A stretch of 64,000 nucleotides of DNA from a virus. Within the stretch, counting starts at the first letter, position 1; every line of letters begins with the position of its first letter. Location of the stretch: positions 28,962 through 92,961 of IMG/VR virus record IMGVR_UViG_3300005264_000001; one strand, given 5' to 3'. Below the pieces are notes generated by a model. The model made no database searches, was not told the DNA's origin, and worked only from the letters and a program-made list of their open reading frames with translations. Positions 22,764 through 61,906 of this stretch are shown in pieces. A program made the translations under genes and the position numbers.

Positions 22764-23756
22764 TTATGCTGCTGTAATAATTACACCGGCTGTGTCAGCT
22801 GCGATAGCCATTCCAACATCGATTGCGAAAATGTGTTCGTAATCTCCTGCTGTTTGAGGTAATCTACCTGAGTAAATATCCATTCCACCTTCTTGTACAA
22901 TTTGTAAGAAGTATCTGTTATCAACAGCGATTGCATGAATCGCTTTTGCGTTTGAAACTTTTCCTTCTAAGATATCCCATTCAGTAATTGCTGTTCCATT
23001 AAAGTTTACCATTTCTGTGTTAACATTTTGTAAACTTCCAATGTTGTAAGCAGCCATTGCTCTAAATTGTTCATCTAATTGTAGAGTTTCCCAACCTGTA
23101 GGTGACATTGCTACGTTAGTACATTTGAATGTTTGTAATACACCGTTAGTATCTTTTTGACCCTTGAAGTATTTTTTAGCTTTTACTAAGTTAGCCCAAG
23201 TTAATCCACCAGTAATATCTGTTGCAGATTTTACACCAGCAATCATTTTATCAATTACAGCATCGAACTTAGCTCTATGAATAGCAGCTGAATTTTCTTC
23301 CATAATTTGTTTAACTACACCAGGAGCTCCTGTTTTAGCCAATCTTCTATTAACTCTTAATGCTGAGTAATATGTAAAACAACTTACAGTCATTTCTGTT
23401 ACAGTAGCTGTTTGGTAAGTTACAGTGTTATCGTTATCGTTATCAAACTTAGCACCAGTCATACCAGCTACTTTAGGAACTTTATATACTCCTGCTCCAT
23501 CGATTCCACCTAACTCTGCTGGAGTCCATGTTCTAATTGCTGCAGCGTAATTTGAAAAATCTTTTTCTGCAAATGCAAATACACTTCTTGCAATTTTTGT
23601 TGTTAGAGCTGAACCTGTATTACCTACATTTTGTCCTGCTTCTGTAAACGCTTCATTAAATTTTGCGTTTTCCTTTACTTCTTTTTCGAAAGCTTCAGTT
23701 AAGTAGTCTCCTACAATACTTCTTGCTCCATCCATTGTTTTTACTTCAAATGCCAT
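22764..23756 (-). CDS. major capsid protein, HK97 fold
   Basis: A 330-residue protein preceded by scaffold and protease genes. Features fitting the HK97 fold: N-terminal arm; LTTKIARSVFAFAEKDFSNYAAAIRTW segment; long E-loop-like stretch with TVTEMTVSCFTYYSALRVNRRLAKTG; spine-helix region IMEENSAAIHRAKFDAVIDKMIAG (~150-175); and an A-domain ending GGMDIYSGRLPQTAGDYEHIFAIDVGMAIAADTAGV. This is the most Ala/Gly-rich, least AT-biased coding stretch, as expected for a highly expressed protein. It starts 3 nt after the scaffold stop. Confidence 0.85.
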   Translation of the reverse strand: MAFEVKTMDGARSIVGDYLTEAFEKEVKENAKFNEAFTEAGQNVGNTGSALTTKIARSVFAFAEKDFSNYAAAIRTWTPAELGGIDGAGVYKVPKVAGMTGAKFDNDNDNTVTYQTATVTEMTVSCFTYYSALRVNRRLAKTGAPGVVKQIMEENSAAIHRAKFDAVIDKMIAGVKSATDITGGLTWANLVKAKKYFKGQKDTNGVLQTFKCTNVAMSPTGWETLQLDEQFRAMAAYNIGSLQNVNTEMVNFNGTAITEWDILEGKVSNAKAIHAIAVDNRYFLQIVQEGGMDIYSGRLPQTAGDYEHIFAIDVGMAIAADTAGVIITAA

Positions 23757-24360: not shown

Positions 24361-24375
24361 TTTTTAAATATATTT
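24361..24375 (-). promoter_or_regulatory. late TATA box for scaffold-capsid operon
   Basis: Minus-strand AAATATATTTAAAAA, 34 nt before the scaffold ATG. Confidence 0.7.
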
Positions 24376-24951
24376 AATATTGTTAATAATTTCGTTCATT
24401 TTTTCCATGAACTCTTCTTTTTTCTTAGATTCTTCTGTGTTTAATTGCTCAACTGCTGACCCCTCAAAACTTTCTGCGAATACAACTTTAGCTTCTTCAA
24501 ATCCTTCACATGAGACTATCGAACATTCATTCCACGACTTTACAGTTGCTTCTCTATATGATTCTCCAGACTCTGTTTGTTTATTTAATGCTTGACCGTT
24601 AATGTTAAGACTAACTCTTAACTCACTTGCGTTTCTTAAATACTCAATTAAACTCTCGTTATATTTTGTATCATAAATCTTTGCTGTACCATATAATCCG
24701 TCTTCCTTACCCTCAACAGATAACCAATGCCCTACTGGTAATGAATGGTCTGAAGTTTTGTGATTGTACATAACATTCTTACCGATTAACTCATTAGCTT
24801 TTTCTAAGATTGACTCTTTATTATACAATACACCGTTTCTTGAAGTTTTATGAAAAGGAACAATCATACCTGAGATTGTCTTATCTTTTGCTTCATTAGC
24901 TTCAGAAAATACTGTATCTATACTAAGGTTTTTGTTTTTAATATCAACCAT
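24364..24951 (-). CDS. prohead protease
   Basis: 195 residues with the S78/U35-type prohead protease layout: TISGMIVPFHKTSRNGVLYNKESI near residues 26-50, the catalytic-type His in IGKNVMYNHKTSDHSLPVGHW (~58-76), and a second motif with LRVSLNINGQALN (~115-125), the usual Ser position. It matures scaffold and capsid proteins. Downstream neighbours are scaffold and capsid. Late box at 24974-24988. Confidence 0.8.
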   Translation of the reverse strand: MVDIKNKNLSIDTVFSEANEAKDKTISGMIVPFHKTSRNGVLYNKESILEKANELIGKNVMYNHKTSDHSLPVGHWLSVEGKEDGLYGTAKIYDTKYNESLIEYLRNASELRVSLNINGQALNKQTESGESYREATVKSWNECSIVSCEGFEEAKVVFAESFEGSAVEQLNTEESKKKEEFMEKMNEIINNIKYI

Positions 24952-24973: not shown

Positions 24974-24988
24974 TTTTTAAATATATTT
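24974..24988 (-). promoter_or_regulatory. late TATA box for prohead protease
   Basis: Minus-strand AAATATATTTAAAAA, 22 nt before the ATG at 24951. Confidence 0.7.
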
Positions 24989-24992
24989 AGAA

Positions 24993-25997
24993 TTAGTAAA
25001 TGACCTTCTGGTCATCATTTATAATTACAAATCCACAATTAAGTTCTTTAATTATATTATTCATTCTTATTTCATCTTTCTTCATTTGCTTCTCACTACT
25101 TCTGTGATAACACTCATTAACTTCATATACAACATTATTAACTTCATCATAACCATCTACGAAATATCGTAATACTTGATATTGTCTTGTAATGTTTATA
25201 TCTAGTTTATATTCAATCATATCTAAAGCAGCTGTTTCGTTCCTACCAATCATTGGAGAAAAAGAAACACTCTTTAAACCATACTTTCTTATATGTTCAG
25301 TAATAGCTTTACTTCTCCTTAAAGAAGTCAATTCTTTTTGTTCTTTAGTTCTGTTTTTTAAAGTTTCTTTAAACTTTCTAACTCTAGATAATTCTTGTTT
25401 TATAGTTAAACTTTTTCTATGCTGTCTCATAAATATACTTTGTCTTTTAGACATTTGTTGTCTTGTCTCATCAGACATATTCTCATTGACTTTCTTTCTA
25501 GCCTCACTTTGATTTTTAAAAACATCAGCTTTCTTTTCATCACTCCAATTTTTCATAGTTTCTTTTCTTTTATTAGCAATTTCTTTCTTTTGTTCAGGAG
25601 TTAAACTGTTAAGCCAAGCATTATGTGTTACTCTATATCTTTCCCTCATTTCTTTAGTATGTACTCTATTCCTTAATAATTCACTTCTATCAGCACTCAT
25701 CTTTTCCTTAGCTTCGTGTGACATATTTTCAAGACCTACAAACAATCTATCTATTTTTGCTTGTCTTTCCTCATCAGAAATAGTTTTATTATAGGCTGTC
25801 ATACCTTTACTTTGACTACTTTTGAATTCTTTTGAGTTACAGAATGCTCTTCTTTTTTCACTCATTATATCTATGTTTGGAAAATTAATTATATACTCTG
25901 GTACACTTGTATTATGTGTTTTTAGGTGTCTAGTAGTAATTTGTTTAAATTCTCTATTACAAATCTCACATGTAACTTTATCTTTTAACTCTTTCAT
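24993..25997 (-). CDS. free-standing homing endonuclease, VSR/EDxHD-like, copy 1
   Basis: 334 residues. N-terminal zinc finger (CEICNREFKQITTRHLKTH, residues 8-26) of the type seen in MucR-like and intron-homing proteins. It is followed by Lys/Arg-rich short repeats with (S/T)-xx-x(K/R) patterns like NUMOD3, and a C-terminal nuclease-like domain: ALDMIE ... INITRQYQVLRYFVDGYDEVNNVVYEV ... YHR ... KDEIRMNNI ... GFVIINDD. The D-G-Y, E and YH elements match very-short-patch-repair (EDxHD) homing nucleases. It sits in a virion operon as a mobile insertion; an early-type TATA (TTTATAAA, 26011-26018) precedes it. Confidence 0.75.
   Translation of the reverse strand: MKELKDKVTCEICNREFKQITTRHLKTHNTSVPEYIINFPNIDIMSEKRRAFCNSKEFKSSQSKGMTAYNKTISDEERQAKIDRLFVGLENMSHEAKEKMSADRSELLRNRVHTKEMRERYRVTHNAWLNSLTPEQKKEIANKRKETMKNWSDEKKADVFKNQSEARKKVNENMSDETRQQMSKRQSIFMRQHRKSLTIKQELSRVRKFKETLKNRTKEQKELTSLRRSKAITEHIRKYGLKSVSFSPMIGRNETAALDMIEYKLDINITRQYQVLRYFVDGYDEVNNVVYEVNECYHRSSEKQMKKDEIRMNNIIKELNCGFVIINDDQKVIY
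24998..25085. repeat. 88-bp repeat shared by two homing endonuclease 3' ends, copy 1
   Basis: Identical to 28867-28954. It encodes the C-terminal ~28 residues of each endonuclease and includes the small inverted repeat ATGACC-TTCT-GGTCAT. Confidence 0.85.
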
Positions 25998-26059: not shown

Positions 26060-26572
26060 TTAAAAAGGTAATGTGTAAGGTTTATCTAAGTTAATAGATA
26101 AAAATAATTCAAATGCTCTTTTTTGAAATGTAAAATGTTTACCATTAAATAATTTAATCATTTCATCTTTAATAGGTTTAGATAAACAATTAATCATTAA
26201 TTGAATAAATTCTTCTTTTGATTTTTTAATACCCTCATGAAACTCGCTGTCTATTGTGTACTCATAACCACCTTTAACATGAAAGATTTTACTTCTTTTT
26301 TCATGAACTAGTTTTAAATATGTTGTGTGGTCTTCTGTACTCATATTGTAAGCTTCACTTGGTTCTGTAATTCTCAAATGTTCTTCACCTTCAAATGCAG
26401 ACATATAAACATTATCTTTTAGAATTTGTAATTTGTATTCATTCTCTCTTTCAACTATAGCATCTCTGACACTTGATTGATTAAGATAAGAATCTCTTGC
26501 GTTTCTTAATTTTATACTTGCTGTTTGAACTCCTTCTTTTAATTGGCTTATCATTTCGTTTTTAGTTACCAT
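26060..26572 (-). CDS. unknown early protein
   Basis: 170 residues, helical, charged, no family recognised. An early box (plus strand TTTATAAGTCTTTCG at 26594-26608) gives a leaderless start. The 31 bp from the TATA box to the ATG match those of the DNA ligase gene at 63570-63601. It is an early gene lodged among late genes. Confidence 0.65.
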   Translation of the reverse strand: MVTKNEMISQLKEGVQTASIKLRNARDSYLNQSSVRDAIVERENEYKLQILKDNVYMSAFEGEEHLRITEPSEAYNMSTEDHTTYLKLVHEKRSKIFHVKGGYEYTIDSEFHEGIKKSKEEFIQLMINCLSKPIKDEMIKLFNGKHFTFQKRAFELFLSINLDKPYTLPF

Positions 26573-26638: not shown

Positions 26639-27688
26639 TTATTTTATTAATACTAAGAACTCTTTTCTTACATTAATACTAAATTCTTCTCCTTTTTCCA
26701 AAGAGTCAAACTTTGATTCATATTTTGAGAATACTTTTTCGACTGAGCGTTTGATATCTCTCAATTTATAATCCTTTTGAAATTCTTGGGCTAAACTTTG
26801 ATAACATACAGCGACTAGTTCAGATAAAGATTTGCTATGCATAGCAAATCCAGAGTACTTAAAAAAATATTTCTTACCTGGTGCATCTTTTCTTTTTATA
26901 GACACAGTATTTATAGTAGATAATTTTTCTTTAAATCCATCTTGTAATCTTTCGATTAAATTTTTAAGTCTTTCGTTTGTTTCTTTATAACTCAAATTAT
27001 GTTGGTCAAATACAGATTTTAATTTCTTATCAAATCCTTTAACTTTAACATTATTTCTCTTTTTCCATAATCCGTTTAATACACCTGCTCTCTTAGTCTT
27101 TTTTAAACTTCCTATATGTTTGTTTAGTGACTTAAAGAAGAGTCTTATAAACGTCTTAGAAACGGGTCTAAATGAACTATTAGCACCATTACTAACGAAT
27201 GTAGCAAAGTCTGCAATATCTTTTGTTAATTCTTTCTTTTGTTTGTCATTTAGTTCAGCACCTGGGACTGGTTTATATAAATAATCATGTGATAGTTCAT
27301 AAGCCACAGTATGTAAGAATGTTCTTACTTGTACTTCTACTTGTCCTAAATTGTGTTGAACAACTCCTGCGTAGTCAGGTCTAGGATTTACAATGTAATC
27401 TGATGTAGTTGTAATTAAGTCTTTGAATATCTCTTTAATTCGACCGGCAATCACTTTATATCTACTCATGTTATCAATGTGAATTCTAAATCCAAATAAA
27501 TCTCCTAAATCTTCTAATTTTCTATATTTATCAGGTTTGGTTTTAATTTTGTTTAATGCTGAGTTTAAATCTTTTGCTCTATAAGTATAAGTAGTACCGT
27601 CTAATTTTCCTAATCTTTTTCTAATCTCTGGAATAATTGTAGAGTTTAGATTTTTCATCAATTTATCATAATCCTTCTTATTCGCCAT
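26639..27688 (-). CDS. RelA/SpoT-type (p)ppGpp synthetase
   Basis: 349 residues with a nucleotidyltransferase domain of the RelA/SpoT kind at residues ~30-140. It has YTYRAKDLNSALNKI (R37, K39, ATP-binding RxKS region), KLEDLGDLFGFRI (D60/D63, metal-binding E/DLxGxR motif), DYIVNPRPDYAGVVQH (Y106, guanine-stacking Tyr region), VEVQVRT (E118) and the AYELSHDYLYK tail. All canonical synthetase residues appear to be kept. The C-terminal ~200 residues are helical and not a TGS/ACT regulatory region. No HD hydrolase half is present. It overlaps the upstream 95-residue gene by 11 nt under a late promoter. Confidence 0.8.
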   Translation of the reverse strand: MANKKDYDKLMKNLNSTIIPEIRKRLGKLDGTTYTYRAKDLNSALNKIKTKPDKYRKLEDLGDLFGFRIHIDNMSRYKVIAGRIKEIFKDLITTTSDYIVNPRPDYAGVVQHNLGQVEVQVRTFLHTVAYELSHDYLYKPVPGAELNDKQKKELTKDIADFATFVSNGANSSFRPVSKTFIRLFFKSLNKHIGSLKKTKRAGVLNGLWKKRNNVKVKGFDKKLKSVFDQHNLSYKETNERLKNLIERLQDGFKEKLSTINTVSIKRKDAPGKKYFFKYSGFAMHSKSLSELVAVCYQSLAQEFQKDYKLRDIKRSVEKVFSKYESKFDSLEKGEEFSINVRKEFLVLIK

Positions 27689-27965
27689 CTTTACAACATT
27701 CTATATATTCTTTTATTAACTCTTGACTATCACTAGCAAATTCTGGGTAGATTGTACTAATAGTAGCAATAGCTTCCTCTTTTGTAAATGCTGAAGTAGT
27801 TAATACTTCACTATTACAATCATCTTTGTTTTCCAAAGTTTCTTTAAACACACCAGCGTTATTGTAATCCATTGCTTCCTCAAATGAGTCGAATGATTCA
27901 CAACTTACTAATTCTCCTGTTTTCATATTCTTAGTGAATACAAAACTAAATTCTTTCTTTTCCAT
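27678..27965 (-). CDS. small partner of the (p)ppGpp synthetase operon, unknown
   Basis: A 95-residue acidic protein; starts MEKKEFSFVFTKNMKTGE and has a compact alpha/beta look. It overlaps the synthetase gene by 11 nt, so both are translated from one late mRNA (box at 28000-28015). Whether it is a regulator or inhibitor of the synthetase cannot be told. Confidence 0.6.
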   Translation of the reverse strand: MEKKEFSFVFTKNMKTGELVSCESFDSFEEAMDYNNAGVFKETLENKDDCNSEVLTTSAFTKEEAIATISTIYPEFASDSQELIKEYIECCKDGE

Positions 27966-27999
27966 TTTATTTAATATAGTAAAGTAATATAAATATTAC

Positions 28000-28015
28000 T
28001 TTTTAAATATATTTT
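28000..28015 (-). promoter_or_regulatory. late TATA box of the (p)ppGpp synthetase operon
   Basis: Minus-strand AAAATATATTTAAAAA, 34 nt upstream of the ATG at 27965, same class as capsid and tail gene promoters. Confidence 0.7.
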
Positions 28016-28854: not shown

Positions 28855-28858
28855 TTTA

Positions 28859-29812
28859 TTATTCATAAATGACCTTCTGGTCATCATTTATAATTACAAA
28901 TCCACAATTAAGTTCTTTAATTATATTATTCATTCTTATTTCATCTTTCTTCATATTCTTAGGTCTCCTATGATGATTTTCATATACTTCATATACAACA
29001 TTGTTAATCTCATCATAGCCATCTACAAAATACTGTAAAATAGGAAATTGTCTTGTAATGTTTATATTAAGTTTACTTTCCATCATATCTAAAGCTTTTG
29101 TTTCATTCTTACCAATATTTGGCAAGAACTCTTTTCCATTTATTTTTCTATGTTTTTTAAAATATTCTATTGCAGATTTTCTAATTTTTTCTTTCCATTC
29201 ACTTTTTACTTCTGGTGTCATCTGATTGTGAACATTTTTTGAATGTTCTGAAAAATCAAAAGTAGACTTAGCCAATGCTTCTTTTGTTTGTTTAGCCAAC
29301 TCTCTTCTTCTTTCTACTGGTGTGTTTTCCCAAGCTTTCTTTTGTGACTTACTCAACTTTTTCAAAGACTCTTCACTCCACTCATATCCCATGTGTACTT
29401 TAGACATATGTTCTCTATGCCCTGGTCTTTTCCATACCTCTAATTGTCCTTTTGACATAGACTTTTTCCATGCTCCAATATCTTTTGGTTTATTCCATAT
29501 ACCTTTCATAGTTATACTTTTCTTCTCACCGGCTATTCTGAGACTTTCACAAGTCTCTTTAGTTAGTCCTTTATGCCAAGCACACTTCTTTTTTAGTTCC
29601 TTGGCTTTTTTCTTTCCATGTATTTCTTCAAAAGTTTTACCCTTAATGGTGTTTCCATAACAATTTTCGGATAATAATTTTCTAGTGTTATCACTAAGTA
29701 AATTAGAGTTTGGAAATTTTTCTTTATAATATTCTATTGTAGTGTTGTGTCTTTTTAAGTGAGTATTTGTAATACTCTTAAATTCTTTACCACAAATTTT
29801 ACATTCTACCAT
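28859..29812 (-). CDS. free-standing homing endonuclease, VSR/EDxHD-like, copy 2
   Basis: 317 residues, same plan as the protein at 24993-25997. N-terminal zinc finger CKICGKEFKSITNTHLKRH, NUMOD-like middle with repeated W-(S/K)xx and KAW segments, and nuclease domain ending FVDGYDEINNVVYEVYENHHR...KDEIRMNNI. The last ~28 codons are identical at the DNA level to copy 1, whereas the middles differ, showing recent recombination. It has its own late-class box (29834-29848). Confidence 0.75.
   Translation of the reverse strand: MVECKICGKEFKSITNTHLKRHNTTIEYYKEKFPNSNLLSDNTRKLLSENCYGNTIKGKTFEEIHGKKKAKELKKKCAWHKGLTKETCESLRIAGEKKSITMKGIWNKPKDIGAWKKSMSKGQLEVWKRPGHREHMSKVHMGYEWSEESLKKLSKSQKKAWENTPVERRRELAKQTKEALAKSTFDFSEHSKNVHNQMTPEVKSEWKEKIRKSAIEYFKKHRKINGKEFLPNIGKNETKALDMMESKLNINITRQFPILQYFVDGYDEINNVVYEVYENHHRRPKNMKKDEIRMNNIIKELNCGFVIINDDQKVIYE
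28867..28954. repeat. 88-bp repeat shared by two homing endonuclease 3' ends, copy 2
   Basis: Identical to 24998-25085; carries the hairpin ATGACC-TTCT-GGTCAT. Confidence 0.85.
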
Positions 29813-29871: not shown

Positions 29872-32316
29872 TCACTCATAAGGAATCCAAGAACACCTAC
29901 ATCCCCACTCATCAGTGATTAAAGGTTTTTTACCACTTAATAAGTCATCAATTAAAAACACATGTTTGTTAAGTTTCCTGTGGGAATTCCTAACTTTTTC
30001 GTCACGCCTCGTTCTGAGCTGTGCTCGAGTTAAGCCCAAATTTTTCCACTTTCTAAGTTTAATGATTGAACCAGCTGTTCTTGCTCCTTTCTTTATTACA
30101 ACATCAAATCTATTTACAATTCCACTCTTGTAATCATACTTTGTTCTAATCTGGTTTTTAATATCTTTAACATCAACACCACGTCCAACCATATCAGCTA
30201 TATCAGACATTACCATCTGTGAAACATTGTTTTTTGTTTGTTCTACACTTTGTAGTATAACGTCTTGCATGAGTCTCTGCTTGTCTGAGATGGTCTTTTC
30301 TCCTTTCTTGATAACTTTGTCGTGAGCTTCATTATCTACTCTAGGAATCGTTCCTACTTCGTTATTTACTATGATGTTGTGTTTAGTTAAGGCTCTCCCA
30401 ACACTTCTGTTTATTCTACTACCAAATATATTAAATTTCTTCTTTAATCCAGGGAAAAATGTATCACTCAAAAATCCTTCAGTTAAACATACAGGTATTT
30501 CTGTATTTAGACTTTCTTTTATTTTCTCTTTTTTATCTAACATAGAAATTATATCATCAATAAGAGTATTCCAATCTTTTTCAACATCATCTCCTACTCC
30601 ATCTAAAAGTTTGTCCTCTTCTGATTCTTCATCATCAAAGATTTCTTGTTCATCTAAAAGATGTTTAATTAAAGCATCATAAGTTTCTTTAGCTTGACTT
30701 ACACCTTCATCTACTCTTTCTACTTTATGTAATAGTAGGGATTGAAAAATTAAATAAGAATTTTCATCTTTAATTAATCTAACTACTATTCCTCCAATGT
30801 CCCTCTTACTGAGTTCTTTTGACTTGGAGGATAAACTAAAACCTGTTTTGTTATTTAGTTTATTTACTCTTTTACTAAATTCTTCATATGATTCATTACC
30901 ACCTAAACTTTCTGAAAATCCTTTTAAACTTTCTGTTTCATTAGTTTCTTTAGGAAGGTTTTTAGTATCTAATTCGATACCTTCAAACACTCCTAATTTA
31001 TTATAATAATCTACAATTTGCTCTCTTGTAATTACTCCTTGATTAATTAAACTATCAACTAAACTTGTATAGTCTTGAACGTTTCCACTTAATTGAGGTG
31101 TGTCAAATACAAATGTAGCATTAAATGGTACATTTTCTTTACCAAAATCTTTTCTTAATCTAGATAAGATAATTTCATTTAGATATTTTACAAGTGCTCC
31201 TTGTCTACTTTTCAATCTTAACATAAAAGCCGGCATTGCTTGTTCACTTCCCATTGTTGTAGCACTATCTGACCAAGGTGTTAAGTGTTGTGGTAATAAA
31301 CTCATAACAAGCATTCTTCTAACTAAATCAAACACTCCTTCCAATGTATCATAATTTCCACTTACTTTAATATCTTGTTCTAACATCTTTAGTGGGTAAG
31401 GTAAAATCTTAAAGGAACTTCCAGTATCAGCTAATTTGTCTTCAATATCTTCTTGAACTGGTTTACTCATTTGAAAACCTTTTCCATCTTTATCAAGTGT
31501 CATAATCTTTTGGTCAATAGCTTTATTTCTTGCGATTGTATCCCATGCTCCTATAATAGATGAATATACATTGAATGCATCAATTCCTGAAGCTAAAATA
31601 CTTCTACCATAAACATTATCACTTGAAAATCCTGTTGTTCTTAAATCCATTTCACCGTCTGAGATGTATACACCATATATTGTAAATCTCATAAATACAT
31701 TATTCTTAATATATCCTACTTGTATTTGTGTTGGTGTTTTAACTTTACCAGCGAACTTAAAACTAGTTTGTCCTTGTGGTGTCATTAAAATATATTTTTT
31801 TGAACCATCTTCATCTTCTAAATTTACAAATATACGAGACATATCATTATATGTTCCAATACCATTAAAGTATGTTTTACCATCATCTCCTTTCTTATAG
31901 AAGAATTGAACAGGTGCATTTCCAAAAATAGTGTTAGCTGTTTCCATTTGTTTAACTTCCTCAAGTAACCAACCTCTAGCATCTAACCAATCATTGATAA
32001 AATCTTCTGCCTTATCATTACCCTCAACAACAACTCTTAAATTATCATTTGAAATCAACATATCATTATACTGATTGATACCAGTTGATACAAGTGGACA
32101 AGTATTATACATTTCTAATTGTCTAATAAACTCATAATGAGGTGTTCTATCTTCTCCTTTATCTGTAACTCCTGGAGAGAATGTAAACGCACCTAAATCT
32201 GCTAGGTTTGTTATTTTAGTCTCCATGTTATTATTTTCCTTTATTGCTTCACTTATAAATACATCTCTATAAGTTAACGGTGCGGATTCTTTTATATCTT
32301 CTTTTATTGTTTCCAT
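29872..32316 (-). CDS. portal protein fused to a MuF-like head morphogenesis domain
   Basis: 814 residues. Residues ~50-460 match a portal protein: LEMYNTCPLVSTGINQYNDM, FINDWLDARGWL, YGRSILASGIDAFNVY, then the SLLPQHLTPWSD / MPAFMLRLKSRQGALVKYLNEII wing-stem region. Residues ~690-814 carry a MuF-like domain ending RTRRDEKVRNSHRKLNKHVF ... DEWGCRCSWIPYE, whose W-GCRC and R..H motifs are diagnostic. The stretch in between is acidic and low complexity. Portal-MuF fusions occur in several phage groups. TerL lies two genes upstream. Confidence 0.85.
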   Translation of the reverse strand: METIKEDIKESAPLTYRDVFISEAIKENNNMETKITNLADLGAFTFSPGVTDKGEDRTPHYEFIRQLEMYNTCPLVSTGINQYNDMLISNDNLRVVVEGNDKAEDFINDWLDARGWLLEEVKQMETANTIFGNAPVQFFYKKGDDGKTYFNGIGTYNDMSRIFVNLEDEDGSKKYILMTPQGQTSFKFAGKVKTPTQIQVGYIKNNVFMRFTIYGVYISDGEMDLRTTGFSSDNVYGRSILASGIDAFNVYSSIIGAWDTIARNKAIDQKIMTLDKDGKGFQMSKPVQEDIEDKLADTGSSFKILPYPLKMLEQDIKVSGNYDTLEGVFDLVRRMLVMSLLPQHLTPWSDSATTMGSEQAMPAFMLRLKSRQGALVKYLNEIILSRLRKDFGKENVPFNATFVFDTPQLSGNVQDYTSLVDSLINQGVITREQIVDYYNKLGVFEGIELDTKNLPKETNETESLKGFSESLGGNESYEEFSKRVNKLNNKTGFSLSSKSKELSKRDIGGIVVRLIKDENSYLIFQSLLLHKVERVDEGVSQAKETYDALIKHLLDEQEIFDDEESEEDKLLDGVGDDVEKDWNTLIDDIISMLDKKEKIKESLNTEIPVCLTEGFLSDTFFPGLKKKFNIFGSRINRSVGRALTKHNIIVNNEVGTIPRVDNEAHDKVIKKGEKTISDKQRLMQDVILQSVEQTKNNVSQMVMSDIADMVGRGVDVKDIKNQIRTKYDYKSGIVNRFDVVIKKGARTAGSIIKLRKWKNLGLTRAQLRTRRDEKVRNSHRKLNKHVFLIDDLLSGKKPLITDEWGCRCSWIPYE

Positions 32317-39120: not shown

Positions 39121-39420
39121 TTATAAAGATTTGTATTTAAACCCATAAATATATTTAGATGAACTCTTTGAATTTTCCCAATTATCACAAGTACGATATT
39201 GTCTTACTTTGCTAATATTATTTGCTTTATTAAATTCCTCAATCTTGTCTTCAGGAAGTGTTATTTTTCTCTTATGTGAAATTACAATTAAATATCTACA
39301 TCCCATTATCACCTCAAAATTAAAATATAATCTTTCAAAAAATGTATAGTTGATATTAAAATACTTACATATATCTTCAGGAGTTATTTCAACAATTTCC
39401 TCTATCTTAATCTTAGCCAT
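39121..39420 (-). CDS. unknown early protein
   Basis: 99 residues; ends YKSL-stop where the codons form the TATA box of the next gene. TAATG overlap with rtcB upstream shows operon membership. No family recognised. Confidence 0.55.
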   Translation of the reverse strand: MAKIKIEEIVEITPEDICKYFNINYTFFERLYFNFEVIMGCRYLIVISHKRKITLPEDKIEEFNKANNISKVRQYRTCDNWENSKSSSKYIYGFKYKSL

Positions 39421-40538
39421 TATGCTTTTATATTAAGCACAGGCTTAACCCTCCTTAAAATAGTCGCTGTTGGTTCAATAGCGTCTTCAATTACTTTTGC
39501 ATCTTTATAAGCATTAGGTGCCTCGTCAAGAGTACTTTGTGATATACTTGTACTATACACATTAGCATCTTTCATTTGAGTTTGAAATTCTTCTAAACTT
39601 AATTCTCTCTTAGCTTTTGCTCTTGAATACAATCTACCAGCTCCATGTGGTGCTGAATTATTCCAATCAGGATTACTTTTACCTTCACAAATTAAAAGAC
39701 CATCCTTCATATTAAAAGGTATAACCATTTTCTCACCTACGTATGAACGAATAGCTCCCTTTCTAATAATACCATCTCTAAAATCCATAAAGTTATGAAC
39801 TGAGGATATACGTTCTGTTTCATGTACAACTTTAAAATCAAACACTTCTTTTAACATAATATTTATCATTTCTACTCTATTTAAATCAGCATATTCTTGA
39901 GCGATTGACATATCATACAAATAATCTGAACTATCTTCCTCAGATAAGAACGCTAACTCTTTACAAGTTTGAGTTTTATCTGTTTCAATAGCTATCTTTT
40001 GCCAATAGTCACAAACTTCTTTACCAAATCTTCTACTTCCTGAATGTACAGTCAACCAATAGTCACCAGTCTCATCTTTACCTAACTCAATAAAGTGATT
40101 ACCACCTCCAAGTGTTCCAATTTGTTTTAGTACATTACTTGTCTCTAATTTATTAATCTTCTTACAAATTAAATCAATTTGTCCATAAGTTCCCATATTT
40201 ACATTTGTTTCTTTTTCCTTACTCTTAAATCCAAGTGGTACATATTTTCTAATTAAAATATCTGTGTCTTTTAAGGTCAATGGTATATGTTTACCTATAT
40301 TTACAGATAGAACCCCACATCCGATATCTACAGATATCACGTTGGGACAAACTCTCTTTCCTATTGGACAAGTAAATCCAATAACACTACCTTTCCCCAA
40401 ATGACAGTCAGGCATTACTTTAATAGGAACATCTTTGAAATGTTCTACATTACAGAGACTTTGTATTTGTGAGTAAGTCGCTGCGTCAATATCTTCTGTC
40501 ATTACTTTTGCTGTGTTGTATTTTCCTTTAATTTCCAT
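39420..40538 (-). CDS. rtcB: RNA-splicing ligase RtcB
   Basis: 372 residues, a compact RtcB. Motifs: MPDCHLGKGS (42-51), SVDIGCG (D71, C74, metal ligands), LGGGNHFIE (H147), HSGSRRFG (H165), VHNFMD (H248) and SAPHGAGR with H298 as the nucleotidyl-accepting histidine. RtcB joins 2',3'-cyclic phosphate and 5'-OH RNA ends and is the tRNA-splicing ligase of archaea. It lies in the same leftward operon as a CCA-adding enzyme. No Archease gene is seen. Confidence 0.9.
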   Translation of the reverse strand: MEIKGKYNTAKVMTEDIDAATYSQIQSLCNVEHFKDVPIKVMPDCHLGKGSVIGFTCPIGKRVCPNVISVDIGCGVLSVNIGKHIPLTLKDTDILIRKYVPLGFKSKEKETNVNMGTYGQIDLICKKINKLETSNVLKQIGTLGGGNHFIELGKDETGDYWLTVHSGSRRFGKEVCDYWQKIAIETDKTQTCKELAFLSEEDSSDYLYDMSIAQEYADLNRVEMINIMLKEVFDFKVVHETERISSVHNFMDFRDGIIRKGAIRSYVGEKMVIPFNMKDGLLICEGKSNPDWNNSAPHGAGRLYSRAKAKRELSLEEFQTQMKDANVYSTSISQSTLDEAPNAYKDAKVIEDAIEPTATILRRVKPVLNIKA

Positions 40539-42291: not shown

Positions 42292-42698
42292 TCTTCTTTA
42301 TCCTCTTTGTTATGATATAAATCTATATTTTTAATGTTCTTACTTTTTAACCAATCATCATGTGCTTTCCAAAACAATTCCTCGTTTAATTTTAATGCTA
42401 CTTGTATTGCTCCATTATTAAGTGCGTGATTTTTATTAGATATTCTTTGTTCTTCATCTATTCTCTTTTTCCACTTTTCCTCAAATGTTAAATCATCTTC
42501 TTTATCTACTAAATTTTCTTTTACAAATTGACCTAATTCAAAAGCCTTTTCTGCAATCCTTCTTATATAAAAGTCCTCATCTTCTTTAAATTGGAATGAA
42601 CTTCCAAATAGATATTTTTTAAAACCAAATAAACCTTTAGTTTCAAATAAATCATTGTTTGTTAATTCAAATATCTCGTCTTTATTTAATTTTCTCAT
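42288..42698 (-). CDS. unknown early protein
   Basis: 136 residues, charged and helical; LFGFKKYLFGSSFQFKEDEDFYIRRIAEKAFELGQF. No family recognised. Overlaps the CCA enzyme stop. Confidence 0.55.
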   Translation of the reverse strand: MRKLNKDEIFELTNNDLFETKGLFGFKKYLFGSSFQFKEDEDFYIRRIAEKAFELGQFVKENLVDKEDDLTFEEKWKKRIDEEQRISNKNHALNNGAIQVALKLNEELFWKAHDDWLKSKNIKNIDLYHNKEDKEE

Positions 42699-44089
42699 TC
42701 GTCTAACCCTCTATGAATAGTAACAAATTCTTTTAATTTTTCAAATTCATTCTCAATTTCACCATCACAAACCATTTCAAATAATGGTTCTAAGATTTCT
42801 TTAAACTCTGGACCTGGTTTCATACCCAGCGCAATTAAATCTTTACCTCCAAATTTCATATCCCCAATTTTAAAAGGTGTTTCTTTTTCTTTCAATTCGT
42901 AAAACTTCTTAATTATTTTGTTACCGGCATTAAATATTTCTAAACCTGTAACTTTCTCAAAAACTTTAACTACACTTTCACTTAGTTTAATTGGATTCTT
43001 CTTTTTATTTCCATGACAATCACAAAAGATAAGACTTCCTAATTCTTCAACAGTTACACCATTTTCTTCTAGTTCATTAAATAATTTAATATAAGTATTG
43101 GTTTTAATTGGATTACCTTCAATCATATATCCAAACATATGTCTTCTAATTAAACAATGAACATAATTAATTTCTTCAGTACTTGCTCCAAGATGTTTCA
43201 ACATATATTTCTTCATCAAACTTGCACCTTCTTTTTCATGACCATAAAAATGTGTACCTGTAACAAAATCATGTGTTCTAGTTCTAGCTTTTCCAATATC
43301 ATGAAATAAAGCACTCATAATAAATAAAGGATTATTTGAAATCTTTTGAGCTTCTTGCATTGTATAAATACAGTGTTCTCTTGGTGTTTCGTCATGAAAA
43401 TCTCCACCATCCATTTCCATTTCAGTTCTAAACCAAGTTAAAGGAAACATCTCACTAGCCCAGTATTTAATATGTTTCTCTTTTAAATAAGGTAATACTT
43501 TTTTAAATGAAATCCAAGTTCTTTCTTTTGCAACTCCACTAGTGTCAAACTCTTCAATAGCTTTTAATGTTTCTTCTTCAATATCAAAGCCTAATCTATC
43601 AGCTTGTTCTAAGTATCTGAAATATCTCCCATCATCTTCATTTAATCTATCTCTGGGTTCTCCAACAGCTCTTACAATTTTATCTCTAATATCTTCTAAC
43701 CCTTGGTAATTAAACGCATTACTAGAATGTATAATTCCATCACTTTTACAACATATACAATTCATAAACGCGTCGCAGGTTGCTTGATGTTCAAAAATAT
43801 CATTTCCAACTTCTTTTCTATCACCACTATTTCTATATTGAGAAATTTCTGTATCATCTACGATTACAGTTAGAATCTTTTCTTGTCTTTCTTCTCCACC
43901 AATAACTTTACCTTGTGGAAATACTTTTAGAATATCTGAACAATTTGTAAAGAGGTCAAAATCATGTGGTTCTATCTCTAATAAACTATCACGAATTGCA
44001 CCACCTATCAAAAATACCTCGAAACCTTCAGCTTCAAGTGTCTTCATCATGTCTTTAACTTTGTTTGGTATTACGATTTTTTTCATCAT
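42695..44089 (-). CDS. CCA-adding / poly(A) polymerase-type tRNA nucleotidyltransferase with HD domain
   Basis: 464 residues. N-terminal nucleotidyltransferase: GGAIRDSLLEIEPHDFDLFT (GG and D-x-D). RYFRYLEQADRLGFDIEEET is the family's RRD/flexible neck region (~155-175), and ERTWISFKKVL follows. Then an HD domain: EHCIYTMQEA ... ALFHDIGKARTR ... HEKEGASLMKKYM. This is the bacterial class II architecture; archaea normally use class I enzymes. It adds or repairs the CCA end of tRNAs. The tRNA genes in this window do not encode CCA. Early box at 44111-44125. Confidence 0.8.
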   Translation of the reverse strand: MMKKIVIPNKVKDMMKTLEAEGFEVFLIGGAIRDSLLEIEPHDFDLFTNCSDILKVFPQGKVIGGEERQEKILTVIVDDTEISQYRNSGDRKEVGNDIFEHQATCDAFMNCICCKSDGIIHSSNAFNYQGLEDIRDKIVRAVGEPRDRLNEDDGRYFRYLEQADRLGFDIEEETLKAIEEFDTSGVAKERTWISFKKVLPYLKEKHIKYWASEMFPLTWFRTEMEMDGGDFHDETPREHCIYTMQEAQKISNNPLFIMSALFHDIGKARTRTHDFVTGTHFYGHEKEGASLMKKYMLKHLGASTEEINYVHCLIRRHMFGYMIEGNPIKTNTYIKLFNELEENGVTVEELGSLIFCDCHGNKKKNPIKLSESVVKVFEKVTGLEIFNAGNKIIKKFYELKEKETPFKIGDMKFGGKDLIALGMKPGPEFKEILEPLFEMVCDGEIENEFEKLKEFVTIHRGLDE

Positions 44090-48083: not shown

Positions 48084-48161
48084 AGTACCCGACAGGAATT
48101 GAACCTACACATCTTCCACAACACAAAGGTGGATGCTTTACCTTAATTAAGCTACGGGCAC
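48084..48161 (-). tRNA. tRNA gene with 9-nt anticodon loop (Gln, Thr or His)
   Basis: 78 nt. Acceptor GTGCCCG/CGGGTAC, D stem GCTT/AAGC, anticodon stem TCCAC/GTGGA, T arm GTAGG-TTCAATT-CCTGT. The anticodon loop CTTTGTGTT has nine bases, so the triplet may read TTG, TGT or GTG depending on how the loop is processed. No CCA encoded. Confidence 0.7.
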
Positions 48162-52704: not shown

Positions 52705-53484
52705 TTAATCAAACACCTTCTTATATTTATTTATGTTCTCACAATATTCTTCATAACTAATCTCTTCTAAATTAGACCTATCCCAACGATTATAGCTTAT
52801 TTCTACTTGTCCATCATATTTTTTATGACCATACTTACTAAAACTAAACATAGATGAATATACACTCCAAGTATCAAACTGAATTCTATCAATTTTACAT
52901 ACTCCTAAAATGTCAGCACATTCCTCTTCCTCATAATACTCATCATCTTTATCAACTAAAACTCTAAAATATTTACCATAGTATTTCTCATTTAGTTTTT
53001 CAAATTTTTCTTTCTTTTCAATAATAAAATATTGATTACTTCTACTCAATTTCTCTACATCAACTGTAACGTCATCCAGAGAACCACATTTCTCTAAAAT
53101 CTTTTCAAAACAAATCTTTTTCTTAGTTTCAAATTCTTCAGGTTCTATAACTTTTCCTTGTCTTACATTACCATCTCTTAGACTAGTATTCTCAGAATTA
53201 CTAAAATCAAAGTTGTCTCCTCTAACATCTAATCTCTCACAATCACATCTTACAGTATCACTGTCAAAAGAAGCCTCAGGTTTAAAATATAATTTAGTAA
53301 TCTTAATAATACTACCTGAACCATCATTGAACACATTCTTATAATAGAACGGTAATTTAGTATTTTCCCATCTTTCTATCATACGTTTACAATCAGCTTT
53401 TCTTCTTAAATCACTATCATTTCTTTCTGCTGCTTTCTCTTCTTGTAATCTTACCTTTGTTTTTTCTATATTTTTAAATTCCAT
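52705..53484 (-). CDS. unknown early protein
   Basis: 259 residues, many aromatic and charged residues, mixed fold. No family recognised. Its start overlaps the stop of the HD hydrolase by 1 nt. Confidence 0.55.
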   Translation of the reverse strand: MEFKNIEKTKVRLQEEKAAERNDSDLRRKADCKRMIERWENTKLPFYYKNVFNDGSGSIIKITKLYFKPEASFDSDTVRCDCERLDVRGDNFDFSNSENTSLRDGNVRQGKVIEPEEFETKKKICFEKILEKCGSLDDVTVDVEKLSRSNQYFIIEKKEKFEKLNEKYYGKYFRVLVDKDDEYYEEEECADILGVCKIDRIQFDTWSVYSSMFSFSKYGHKKYDGQVEISYNRWDRSNLEEISYEEYCENINKYKKVFD

Positions 53485-53921
53485 TATTCACTCCTCCAGA
53501 ATTTACTTTTAGTTAAATAAGCATCTTGTCTTTTTTCATCCCAAACACTCATTGTACTTAGATTTTGAGCTCTATCACAAAATTTAATCATAATAGCTTC
53601 AGGTGATTCAAGTCTAGGAAATGTTTTCTCTCCATTTTCATTCTTATCTTTAGTCAATTCTAAAACAAGATTTCTAACTCTTAACCCAAACATTTGAAAT
53701 AACTGTAAAGGAGTTACATCACAATCTTCTAATACGTCATGTAAATAAGCCGCAGCAATTATATTTTCATTATCAGTTAATCCAGCAACCATATCTCCAA
53801 CTACTTTTACATGGGTCTCATAATAACTTTGCCCACCGTCTCTTAATTGTCCTTTATGCATCTCTTGTGCAAAATCTTGTGCTTTCTCAACCATACTTTG
53901 TGTTATAATCATACTTTCCAT
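53484..53921 (-). CDS. HD-type (p)ppGpp hydrolase (MESH1/SpoT-like)
   Basis: 145 residues, close to the size of small alarmone hydrolases. Motifs: HKGQLRDGGQSYYETHVKVVG (H37), IIAAAYLHDVLEDCDV (H61, D62, E65, D66), FGLRVRNLVLELT and IKFCDRAQNLST (D116, N120). These are the metal and substrate residues of the RelA/SpoT hydrolase domain. Early-region operon, opposite in class to the late synthetase at 26639. A related HD nucleotide hydrolase is the alternative. Confidence 0.75.
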   Translation of the reverse strand: MESMIITQSMVEKAQDFAQEMHKGQLRDGGQSYYETHVKVVGDMVAGLTDNENIIAAAYLHDVLEDCDVTPLQLFQMFGLRVRNLVLELTKDKNENGEKTFPRLESPEAIMIKFCDRAQNLSTMSVWDEKRQDAYLTKSKFWRSE

Positions 53922-53923
53922 TC

Positions 53924-54199
53924 TTATTTATTTTCTCCTTTTACATCAGTAAAGTTAATAATCTCATAATTATTATCTTCAAACCATTCTTTTTGTTCAT
54001 AATAGATACAACCTAAACCACCGCAAATGTTATCAATTTCGTAACAAGTGTTTGCTTCGTATTCTTCCCATAGTGATTTAGTACGTCTTAAAGACCATTC
54101 AATACCTAGTTCTTTACACATACTAATAAATTGTTCTGCTTCTTCTTTTGTTTTGCAGTTAACTGCAATCTTTGCTTTTATAATTTGTTTCATTTCCAT
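53924..54199 (-). CDS. small repeat-family protein (IAVxC family)
   Basis: 91 residues. KAKIAVNCKTKEEAEQFISMCKELGI and later CYEID resemble the start of the proteins at 55347 and 56353. These are a paralogous phage family of unknown role. Box at 54227-54240. Confidence 0.55.
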   Translation of the reverse strand: MEMKQIIKAKIAVNCKTKEEAEQFISMCKELGIEWSLRRTKSLWEEYEANTCYEIDNICGGLGCIYYEQKEWFEDNNYEIINFTDVKGENK

Positions 54200-60961: not shown

Positions 60962-61906
60962 ATGGAAGAATCAATTCATAAATTTGACAAGATAAAAAGA
61001 GAAGGAGCACAAAAAGCTAGTAACTTTACTCCTGATGAAGATATTTACAAAACTGAAAAAGTAGATGGGGCAAACGCAAGATTCTTTAAAGGAACAGACC
61101 CAGTTGAAATAAGATTTGCTACAAGAAATACTGTATTTGTTTCATCTAAACATACTGATTATAAAGCAGATGGTTATGGAAGTTTTCAAGTAGCAGTAGA
61201 TTATATTAATAATCATTTAACAGTTGATGACTTAGAAGATGATAAAATTTACTTTGGTGAATGTATGACTAAACATTCTATTAATTATGATTGGTTAAAT
61301 TCTCCTCGATTCATTCTATTTGATATTTATGATACAACAAACAAAACATATTTACGATTAGATAAACTTAGAGAATTTACATCAAAACATGATATGGAAC
61401 TTATACCTGTATTATTTGAAGGTAAATATAAAGATATGCCTACAGATATTCCACAATCTAAATATGGAAATGTACAAGCAGAAGGTTTTGTAATCAAACC
61501 ACAAGAGTGTTCTTATGATGTTACAGGAAATATTCACAGAGCAAAAGTAGTAGGTGAACAATTCAAAGAAGCAAAGAAAGAAGCATGGGGTTCTAGTGGA
61601 AATCCAGTAGAAAGATTTTGTAATAAGTTCTGTACAGTTGCGAGAATTGACAAACTATTACACAAGTTAGTAGATTATGGTGCATTAGAAGATTTAGAAG
61701 AAATGTCTATCTTAAAAAAGATTGGTTTAATTGAATATGAATTATCAAAAGATATTTGTACAGAAGAGTTCAAAGCATTAAGAAAATTAGGAGTAATTAA
61801 TTTCGCTGAAATCAAAAGAGAAGTTATCATAAGAATTAAAAGATTTATTTCATACGTTCCACCTGAAAATAAGATTGAATTAAACACACAAACGAAAGAC
61901 TTATAA
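60962..61906 (+). CDS. Rnl2-type RNA ligase
   Basis: 314 residues, near T4 Rnl2 size. Nucleotidyltransferase motifs: KVDGAN (I, Lys ~33), RNTVF (Ia region), FGEC (III), FILFDIY (IIIa), AEGFVIKP (IV), RAKVVG (V). The C-terminal ~90 residues are helical. It seals 3'-OH/5'-phosphate RNA nicks. Together with RtcB and the HAD phosphatase it completes both end chemistries. Ends TKDL-stop, which is part of the next promoter. Confidence 0.85.
   Translation: MEESIHKFDKIKREGAQKASNFTPDEDIYKTEKVDGANARFFKGTDPVEIRFATRNTVFVSSKHTDYKADGYGSFQVAVDYINNHLTVDDLEDDKIYFGECMTKHSINYDWLNSPRFILFDIYDTTNKTYLRLDKLREFTSKHDMELIPVLFEGKYKDMPTDIPQSKYGNVQAEGFVIKPQECSYDVTGNIHRAKVVGEQFKEAKKEAWGSSGNPVERFCNKFCTVARIDKLLHKLVDYGALEDLEEMSILKKIGLIEYELSKDICTEEFKALRKLGVINFAEIKREVIIRIKRFISYVPPENKIELNTQTKDL

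What the first reader, a model, noticed from the sequence alone, without database searches (positions are those of the whole stretch)
26639..27965. A complete-looking (p)ppGpp synthetase in a late operon of a putative archaeal virus
The RelA/SpoT synthetase residues R37, K39, D60/D63, Y106 and E118 are all present, in a 349-residue protein co-transcribed with an unknown 95-residue partner. Archaea are not generally known to use (p)ppGpp. Being late and beside capsid genes, it may poison or reprogram the host near the end of infection, resist competing viruses, or be packaged. The 95-residue partner could be an antitoxin-like control.
Basis: partly seen in the sequence, partly recalled or inferred. 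Interest (0 to 1): 0.8.

Follow-up and report, generated by a model that had tools for sequence, protein, structure and literature searches.

The report
Alarmone synthetase-like gene in archaeal virus
A virus of archaea carries, among its shell-building genes, a gene for an enzyme resembling the makers of the bacterial stress signal ppGpp, and elsewhere in its genome a second gene resembling the enzymes that destroy that signal, so it may switch such a signal or tRNA-modifying toxin on and off during infection.

Summary
The gene is real: 26639-27688(-), 349 aa, RelA_SpoT domain (Pfam E=1e-10). The ATP-side and metal residues of RelA/SpoT synthetases are intact. The acceptor side is not complete: the guanosine-binding S-x-H is G-V-V, the loop is shorter, and the R/K of RXKD are absent. 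"(p)ppGpp synthetase" is therefore unproven; the acceptor could be an adenine nucleotide or tRNA. The archaeal-virus call holds: 28 ORFs have TTATAAA 27-31 nt before ATG (0.67 expected), without Shine-Dalgarno sites. "Late" is supported: the operon has an ATATATTTAAAAA(C/G) element shared with terminase-like, protease, scaffold and tail genes. The gene lies between portal-MuF and protease genes, where the archaeal provirus Nvie-Pro1 also has a Rel-like gene, in a cassette bracketed by two paralogous nuclease-like genes sharing a 271-nt repeat. I read the pair as effector and antidote/counter-enzyme, a new variant of phage-head RelA/SpoT effectors. RelA/SpoT homologs are not rare in archaea: 133 of 327 genomes in the Woesearchaeota phylum sample. 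Activity, acceptor, packaging, host and the 95-aa partner's role are untested.

The parts
26639..27688 (-). 349-aa RelA/SpoT-type pyrophosphokinase-like protein; synthetase domain about residues 20-150; basic C-terminal extension (residues 166-349, pI 10.1) of unknown fold
   Evidence: PF04607 E=1e-10; TIGR00691 positions 180-327; residue table; charge
27678..27965 (-). 95-aa acidic protein, upstream partner overlapping the Rel start by 11 nt; possible antitoxin/immunity protein (inferred)
   Evidence: no family in Pfam, PHROGs, NCBIfam or PADLOC; pI 4.24
27999..28012 (-). late-class promoter element ATATATTTAAAAAG upstream of the 95-aa/Rel operon
   Evidence: 10 matches in window vs 0.04 expected; same motif upstream of terminase-like, protease, scaffold, baseplate and tail-fibre-like genes
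53484..53921 (-). 145-aa stand-alone RSH-type HD hydrolase (small alarmone hydrolase-like); H37, HD 61-62, ED 65-66, D116, R117, N120 retained
   Evidence: PF13328 HD_4 E=5e-12; PDB matches to Rel HD domains, Mesh1 and a (p)ppApp hydrolase; TIGR00691 positions 2-131 E=4e-18; 35% identity to an archaeal long RSH
53924..54199 (-). 91-aa first gene of the hydrolase operon, with a TTATAAA promoter about 33 nt before its ATG
24986..25256 (.). left copy of the direct repeat bracketing the Rel cassette (3' end of the nuclease-like gene 24993-25997)
   Evidence: 106 nt at 94% plus 167 nt at 78%; 271 nt at 84%, only two copies in the record
28855..29122 (.). right copy of the direct repeat (3' end of the nuclease-like gene 28859-29812)
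   Evidence: the two proteins are 38% identical overall
29872..32316 (-). portal-like protein with C-terminal MuF domain (814 aa), upstream in transcription order
   Evidence: MuF E=1.6e-5, slightly below Pfam cut-off; head morphogenesis E=8e-8 and weak portal matches
24364..24951 (-). prohead protease (S78), downstream of the cassette
   Evidence: PF04586 E=6e-5, above cut-off; PHROG E=4e-12
22764..23756 (-). probable major capsid protein (330 aa)
   Evidence: position after protease and scaffold-like gene; only a weak PHROG match, E=0.09
26060..26572 (-). 170-aa protein directly downstream of Rel with its own TTATAAA promoter; unknown

Best explanation
This is an accessory effector of an archaeal head-tail virus: a stand-alone RelA/SpoT-family 3'-pyrophosphokinase carried as a mobile cassette in the capsid gene module and transcribed with the structural genes. 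Most likely it moves pyrophosphate from ATP onto the 3'-OH of a purine nucleotide or of the terminal adenosine of tRNA, lowering host nucleotide pools or translation. It acts late in infection or after delivery with the virion, as proposed for RelA-type MuF toxins. The virus also makes a RelA/SpoT-type HD hydrolase from the other promoter class, which could reverse that product (antidote) or destroy host-made alarmones. The 95-aa acidic protein may hold the enzyme in check until needed. Shown by sequence: domain families, donor-site and HD motifs, promoter classes, repeat-bracketed cassette, position beside the portal. Inferred: activity, acceptor, timing, delivery, target, functional link to the hydrolase and the 95-aa protein.
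For: RelA_SpoT domain well above cut-off. R37, K39, S43, K47, D63, R68, E118, Q120, R122 and T123 kept where nearly all of 58 archaeal and viral homologs keep them. Late-class element shared with structural genes. Position between portal and protease matches Nvie-Pro1 gene 6, between portal and protease/MCP, while a close relative of Nvie-Pro1 (L266: terminase 42%, portal 47%, MCP 56% identity) lacks the gene, so it is cargo there. Cassette bracketed by a 271-nt direct repeat in two nuclease-like genes. Stand-alone hydrolase with intact motifs. Gly at the syn3 Ser position occurs in only 2 of 58 homologs, this protein and Nvie-Pro1-6; phage Apk2 (p)ppApp synthetases have G-x-N there instead of S-x-H (PMC12226406), and apk2 is followed by iapK and an aph1 hydrolase gene (same source).
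Against: The acceptor loop is degenerate, so the enzyme may be inactive or have another substrate. The hydrolase gene lies about 26 kb away, under a different promoter class, so the pair may be unrelated. No signal, MuF fusion or other sequence mark shows packaging of this protein. The single-sequence AlphaFold model failed (mean pLDDT 48), so the pocket was not confirmed by structure. No relative of this exact protein was found in IMG/VR.
Confidence: 0.5

Rival explanations
1. Two unrelated accessory genes. The hydrolase is an early counter-defence enzyme against host toxSAS or stringent-response alarmones; the synthetase-like protein separately excludes competing viruses or shuts the host down late.
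For: Different promoter classes and 26 kb distance. HD-type alarmone phosphodiesterases in jumbo phages are proposed as counter-defence (PMC7824862). RSHs, including small SYNTH and adjacent SYNTH-HD pairs, exist in archaeal genomes.
Against: Two genes covering successive parts of one family, SYNTH and HD, in one viral genome suggest a link, and phage apk2/aph1 modules show such pairing (PMC12226406).
Confidence: 0.27
2. A canonical (p)ppGpp synthetase that reprogrammes the host through the stringent response.
For: syn2 and syn4 look RSH-like (DLFGFRI, EVQVRT). The closest solved structures by sequence are long-RSH synthetases. Possible hosts such as DPANN carry long RSHs.
Against: S-x-H of the guanosine-binding motif is G-V-V and RXKD is TTSD. 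The host is unknown and ppGpp use in archaea is not established by these data.
Confidence: 0.12
3. A catalytically dead RelA/SpoT-fold protein with a structural or nucleic-acid-binding role in the head, using its basic C-terminal half.
For: Degenerate acceptor loop, strongly basic C-terminal half (pI 10.1), capsid-module position, late-class promoter.
Against: All donor and metal residues are conserved, which is hard to explain without selection for ATP use. The relative of Nvie-Pro1 lacks this gene beside portal and MCP, so it is not generally needed for heads.
Confidence: 0.11

Closest known systems
Nvie-Pro1 gene 6 (FR725450, provirus of Nitrososphaera viennensis), 'protein with N-terminal Rel_Spo-like domain'
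   Same: Archaeal head-tail virus; gene between portal and protease/MCP genes; shared Gly at the syn3 Ser position; 22% identity over 164 residues, E=6e-5 in the local set
   Different: 210 aa as annotated, SAS-like (best solved match RelQ/YjbM, E=1e-13), keeps the His of syn3, lacks the 180-aa basic C-terminal extension; tree placement of both is unresolved
MuF-Apk2 polymorphic toxins of temperate phages, (p)ppApp synthetases with IapK and Aph1 immunity (PMC12226406, PMC5576092, PMC3482391)
   Same: RelA/SpoT synthetase domain in a phage head module beside the portal; Gly in syn3; hydrolase present in the same genome
   Different: Not fused to MuF (here MuF is fused to the portal-like protein); syn3 is GVV, not GxN; syn2 and syn4 look RSH-like; hydrolase not adjacent; archaeal virus
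toxSAS toxin-antitoxin modules (FaRel, FaRel2, CapRel)
   Same: SYNTH domain next to a small partner; HD hydrolase antitoxins (ATfaRel) known (PMC11782079)
   Different: The 95-aa partner matches no antitoxin family; TA behaviour untested
Long RSH (Rel/RelA/SpoT), including those of Woesearchaeota-type archaea
   Same: The two viral genes match TIGR00691 positions 2-131 and 180-327, together the HD-SYNTH half
   Different: Two separate genes, no TGS/ACT regulatory half, altered acceptor motifs

Membership tests
RelA/SpoT synthetase (PF04607) superfamily | Profile match above curated cut-off | tested here: met
   42.3 bits against 27, E=1e-10
RelA/SpoT synthetase (PF04607) superfamily | ATP/Mg residues R, K, S, K, D, E, Q, R | tested here: met
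   R37 K39 S43 K47 D63 E118 Q120 R122
(p)ppGpp synthetase (guanosine 3'-pyrophosphokinase) | syn3 Y-x-S-x-H guanosine-binding motif | tested here: not met
   Y106-A-G-V-V; S in 42 of 58, H in 46 of 58 homologs
(p)ppGpp synthetase (guanosine 3'-pyrophosphokinase) | RXKD/EXDD motif | tested here: not met
   T-T-S-D at that place in the alignment to 1VJ7
(p)ppGpp synthetase (guanosine 3'-pyrophosphokinase) | Pyrophosphate transfer to GDP/GTP | not testable with these tools
   needs enzyme assay
Long RSH (Rel) | HD-SYNTH-TGS-ACT in one chain | tested here: not met
   SYNTH and HD are separate genes 26 kb apart
MuF-Apk2 polymorphic toxin | N-terminal MuF domain fused to the toxin domain | tested here: not met
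   no MuF match in the 349-aa protein; MuF is on the 814-aa portal-like protein
MuF-Apk2 polymorphic toxin | syn3 G-x-N | tested here: inconclusive
   G present, N absent (GVV); motif from PMC12226406
MuF-Apk2 polymorphic toxin | Linked immunity genes iapK and aph1 | tested here: inconclusive
   RSH-type hydrolase encoded but 26 kb away; no IapK family match for the 95-aa protein
toxSAS toxin-antitoxin module | Toxicity neutralised by the neighbouring gene product | not testable with these tools
   only operon layout and opposite charge known
Small alarmone hydrolase (53484-53921) | HD_4 domain with His/HD/ED/Asp metal and catalytic motifs | tested here: met
   PF13328 E=5e-12 above cut-off; motifs read
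Virus of archaea | TATA-box, leaderless transcripts for first genes | tested here: met
   TTATAAA 27-31 nt before ATG in 28 ORFs vs 0.67 in shuffles; 0 of 37 TATA ORFs have an SD-like site, 34 of 77 others do
Virus of archaea | Identified archaeal host | tested here: inconclusive
   terminase-like protein not found in 193 genomes of the Woesearchaeota phylum; other phyla not searched with it; no CRISPR spacer search

The most novel reading that the evidence does not exclude
An archaeal virus runs a two-enzyme pyrophosphate switch: a hydrolase made from one promoter class and a synthetase made with the capsid genes and delivered in the virion. The switch acts on an adenine acceptor (nucleotide or tRNA 3' end) rather than on GDP/GTP, and may sit alongside the virus's own tRNA-related genes (CCA-adding enzyme, RtcB, RNA ligase, tRNAs).
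Probability: 0.17. Interest if true: 0.85.

Novelty: new variant of a known kind. Interest (0 to 1): 0.6.

Why it matters
RelA/SpoT-type effectors in phage heads are known from bacteria, and one archaeal provirus carries a relative. A stand-alone synthetase-like gene plus a separate hydrolase in one archaeal virus, under different promoter classes, makes it directly testable whether archaeal viruses use alarmone-type or tRNA-pyrophosphorylation chemistry against their hosts. It also bears on whether archaea with RelA/SpoT genes use such signals.

Tried and rejected
Homolog searches in IMG/VR with the protein, with Nvie-Pro1-6, with a two-sequence alignment, and with the portal, capsid and DNA polymerase proteins found nothing; they need short near-exact peptides, so this is weak negative evidence. 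Only the Nvie-Pro1 terminase found a relative, L266. Most 'Bacteriophage sp.' hits are unannotated faecal contigs; the one examined closely (L005) is bacterial chromosome with a long RSH. The domain tree leaves the protein unresolved. Small RSH genes inspected in Woesearchaeota-type genomes sit in chromosomal contexts, not beside portal or capsid genes. The PADLOC PtuA hit lies on the C-terminal half and is weak. Pfam GSCFA and other C-terminal hits are below cut-off. Host search with the terminase-like protein was empty.

Full report
Observation. The minus-strand ORF 26639-27688 encodes 349 aa and overlaps the stop of a 95-aa ORF (27678-27965) by 11 nt. It matches Pfam RelA_SpoT with E=1e-10, above the curated cut-off, and NCBIfam's RelA/SpoT model at positions 180-327, the synthetase domain. 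Against solved structures it aligns best to long-RSH synthetase domains, weakly (best E=0.004). The match is far beyond chance.

Active site. Aligned with 57 archaeal and viral homologs, the protein keeps all donor and metal positions: R37, K39, S43, K47, D63, R68, E118, Q120, R122, T123. The acceptor side differs. Rel_Seq has RFKDYIAAPKANGYQSIHT; the window has TTSDYIVNPRPD-YAGVV. The conserved Ser is Gly (only here and in Nvie-Pro1-6 among 58), the His is missing, and the loop is shorter. A study of phage MuF toxins states that S-x-H recognises guanosine in RSHs and that the (p)ppApp synthetase Apk2 has G-x-N there (PMC12226406). The window's GVV fits neither. The acceptor is therefore open, and 'complete' (p)ppGpp synthetase is not justified.

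Virus and expression. The window lies in a 92,961-base virus record. TTATAAA starts 27-31 nt before the ATG in 28 ORFs (0.67 expected in shuffles), with a sharp peak at 28; none of the 37 TATA-type ORFs has a Shine-Dalgarno-like site, while 34 of 77 others do. This is the archaeal leaderless pattern. Some replication genes are phage-like (DNA polymerase A and a clamp loader similar to T4-type loaders), so the archaeal call rests mainly on promoters. A second element, ATATATTTAAAAA(C/G), occurs 10 times (0.04 expected). A slightly looser form of it is absent from the first 20 kb of the record. It precedes the terminase-like, protease, scaffold-like, baseplate-J and tail-fibre-like genes and the 95-aa/Rel operon. 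I call it late-class by the genes it serves; timing itself is inferred.

Neighbourhood. Transcription order is terminase-like, portal-MuF, nuclease-like gene, small ORFs, 95 aa, Rel, 170 aa, nuclease-like gene, S78 protease, scaffold-like, probable MCP. The two nuclease-like genes are paralogs (38% identity) with an N-terminal zinc-finger-like match in both and a weak C-terminal DUF559-like match in one. Their 3' ends form a 271-nt direct repeat found nowhere else in the record, which brackets the Rel cassette and suggests an inserted mobile cassette. Nvie-Pro1 has a Rel-like gene at the equivalent place, and its relative L266 has portal followed directly by protease/MCP. The slot thus takes accessory genes.

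The second gene. Comparing the viral proteins with archaeal RSH loci revealed a 145-aa protein at 53484-53921(-) that matches the HD hydrolase domain of archaeal long RSHs (35% identity, E=2e-15), Pfam HD_4, many solved RSH hydrolases and model positions 2-131 of the same RelA/SpoT model. Its metal and catalytic motifs are present. Its operon uses the TTATAAA promoter class. Synthetase and hydrolase of one family in one virus suggest an effector with an antidote or counter-enzyme, but a functional link is not shown.

Archaeal background. PF04607 hits over cut-off: 133 of 327 genomes in the phylum of a Woesearchaeota genome, mostly about 640-aa long RSHs; 18 of 228 in the Lokiarchaeota phylum; 12 of 345 in the Methanosarcina phylum; 8 of 398 in the Nitrosopumilus phylum; 7 of 243 in a Thermoplasmatota phylum; 1 of 36 in the Methanocaldococcus phylum. 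Metagenome bins may include contamination. A published DPANN survey reports RelA/SpoT in 41.7% of Woesearchaeota (PMC8407392), and an earlier one lists archaeal RSHs (PMC3153485). Adjacent HD and SYNTH genes occur in archaeal loci L219, L225 and L226.

Judgement. RelA/SpoT effectors in phage heads and a Rel-like gene in an archaeal provirus are already known, so I rate it a new variant of a known kind. Activity, acceptor, packaging, host and partner role all need experiments.

Noticed in passing
window 53484-53921 (-): Stand-alone RSH-type HD hydrolase encoded by the same virus; included in the main report because it changes the interpretation.
   Followed up: yes
window 39420-40538, 42695-44089, 60962-61906; tRNAs at 48084, 62501, 63207: RtcB-like RNA ligase, CCA-adding-enzyme-like protein with HD domain, RNA ligase and three tRNA genes: a possible tRNA repair set in an archaeal virus.
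   Followed up: partly
window 24986-25256 and 28855-29122: 271-nt direct repeat at the 3' ends of two paralogous nuclease-like genes bracketing about 3.6 kb.
   Followed up: yes
L219, L225, L226: Adjacent small HD and SYNTH genes in three genomes of the Woesearchaeota phylum sample, resembling split RSH or toxSAS/SAH pairs.
   Followed up: no
L220:2217-6713: 1498-aa protein with C-terminal RelA_SpoT domain and hydrophobic N-terminus in a genome of the Woesearchaeota phylum sample, next to an HD_4 gene; possible exported alarmone-synthetase effector.
   Followed up: no
window, whole: Two sharply spaced promoter classes (TTATAAA at 28 nt; ATATATTTAAAAAC with its ATTTAAAAAC at 31 nt before ATG) that may allow early/late genes of this virus to be predicted.
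   Followed up: partly
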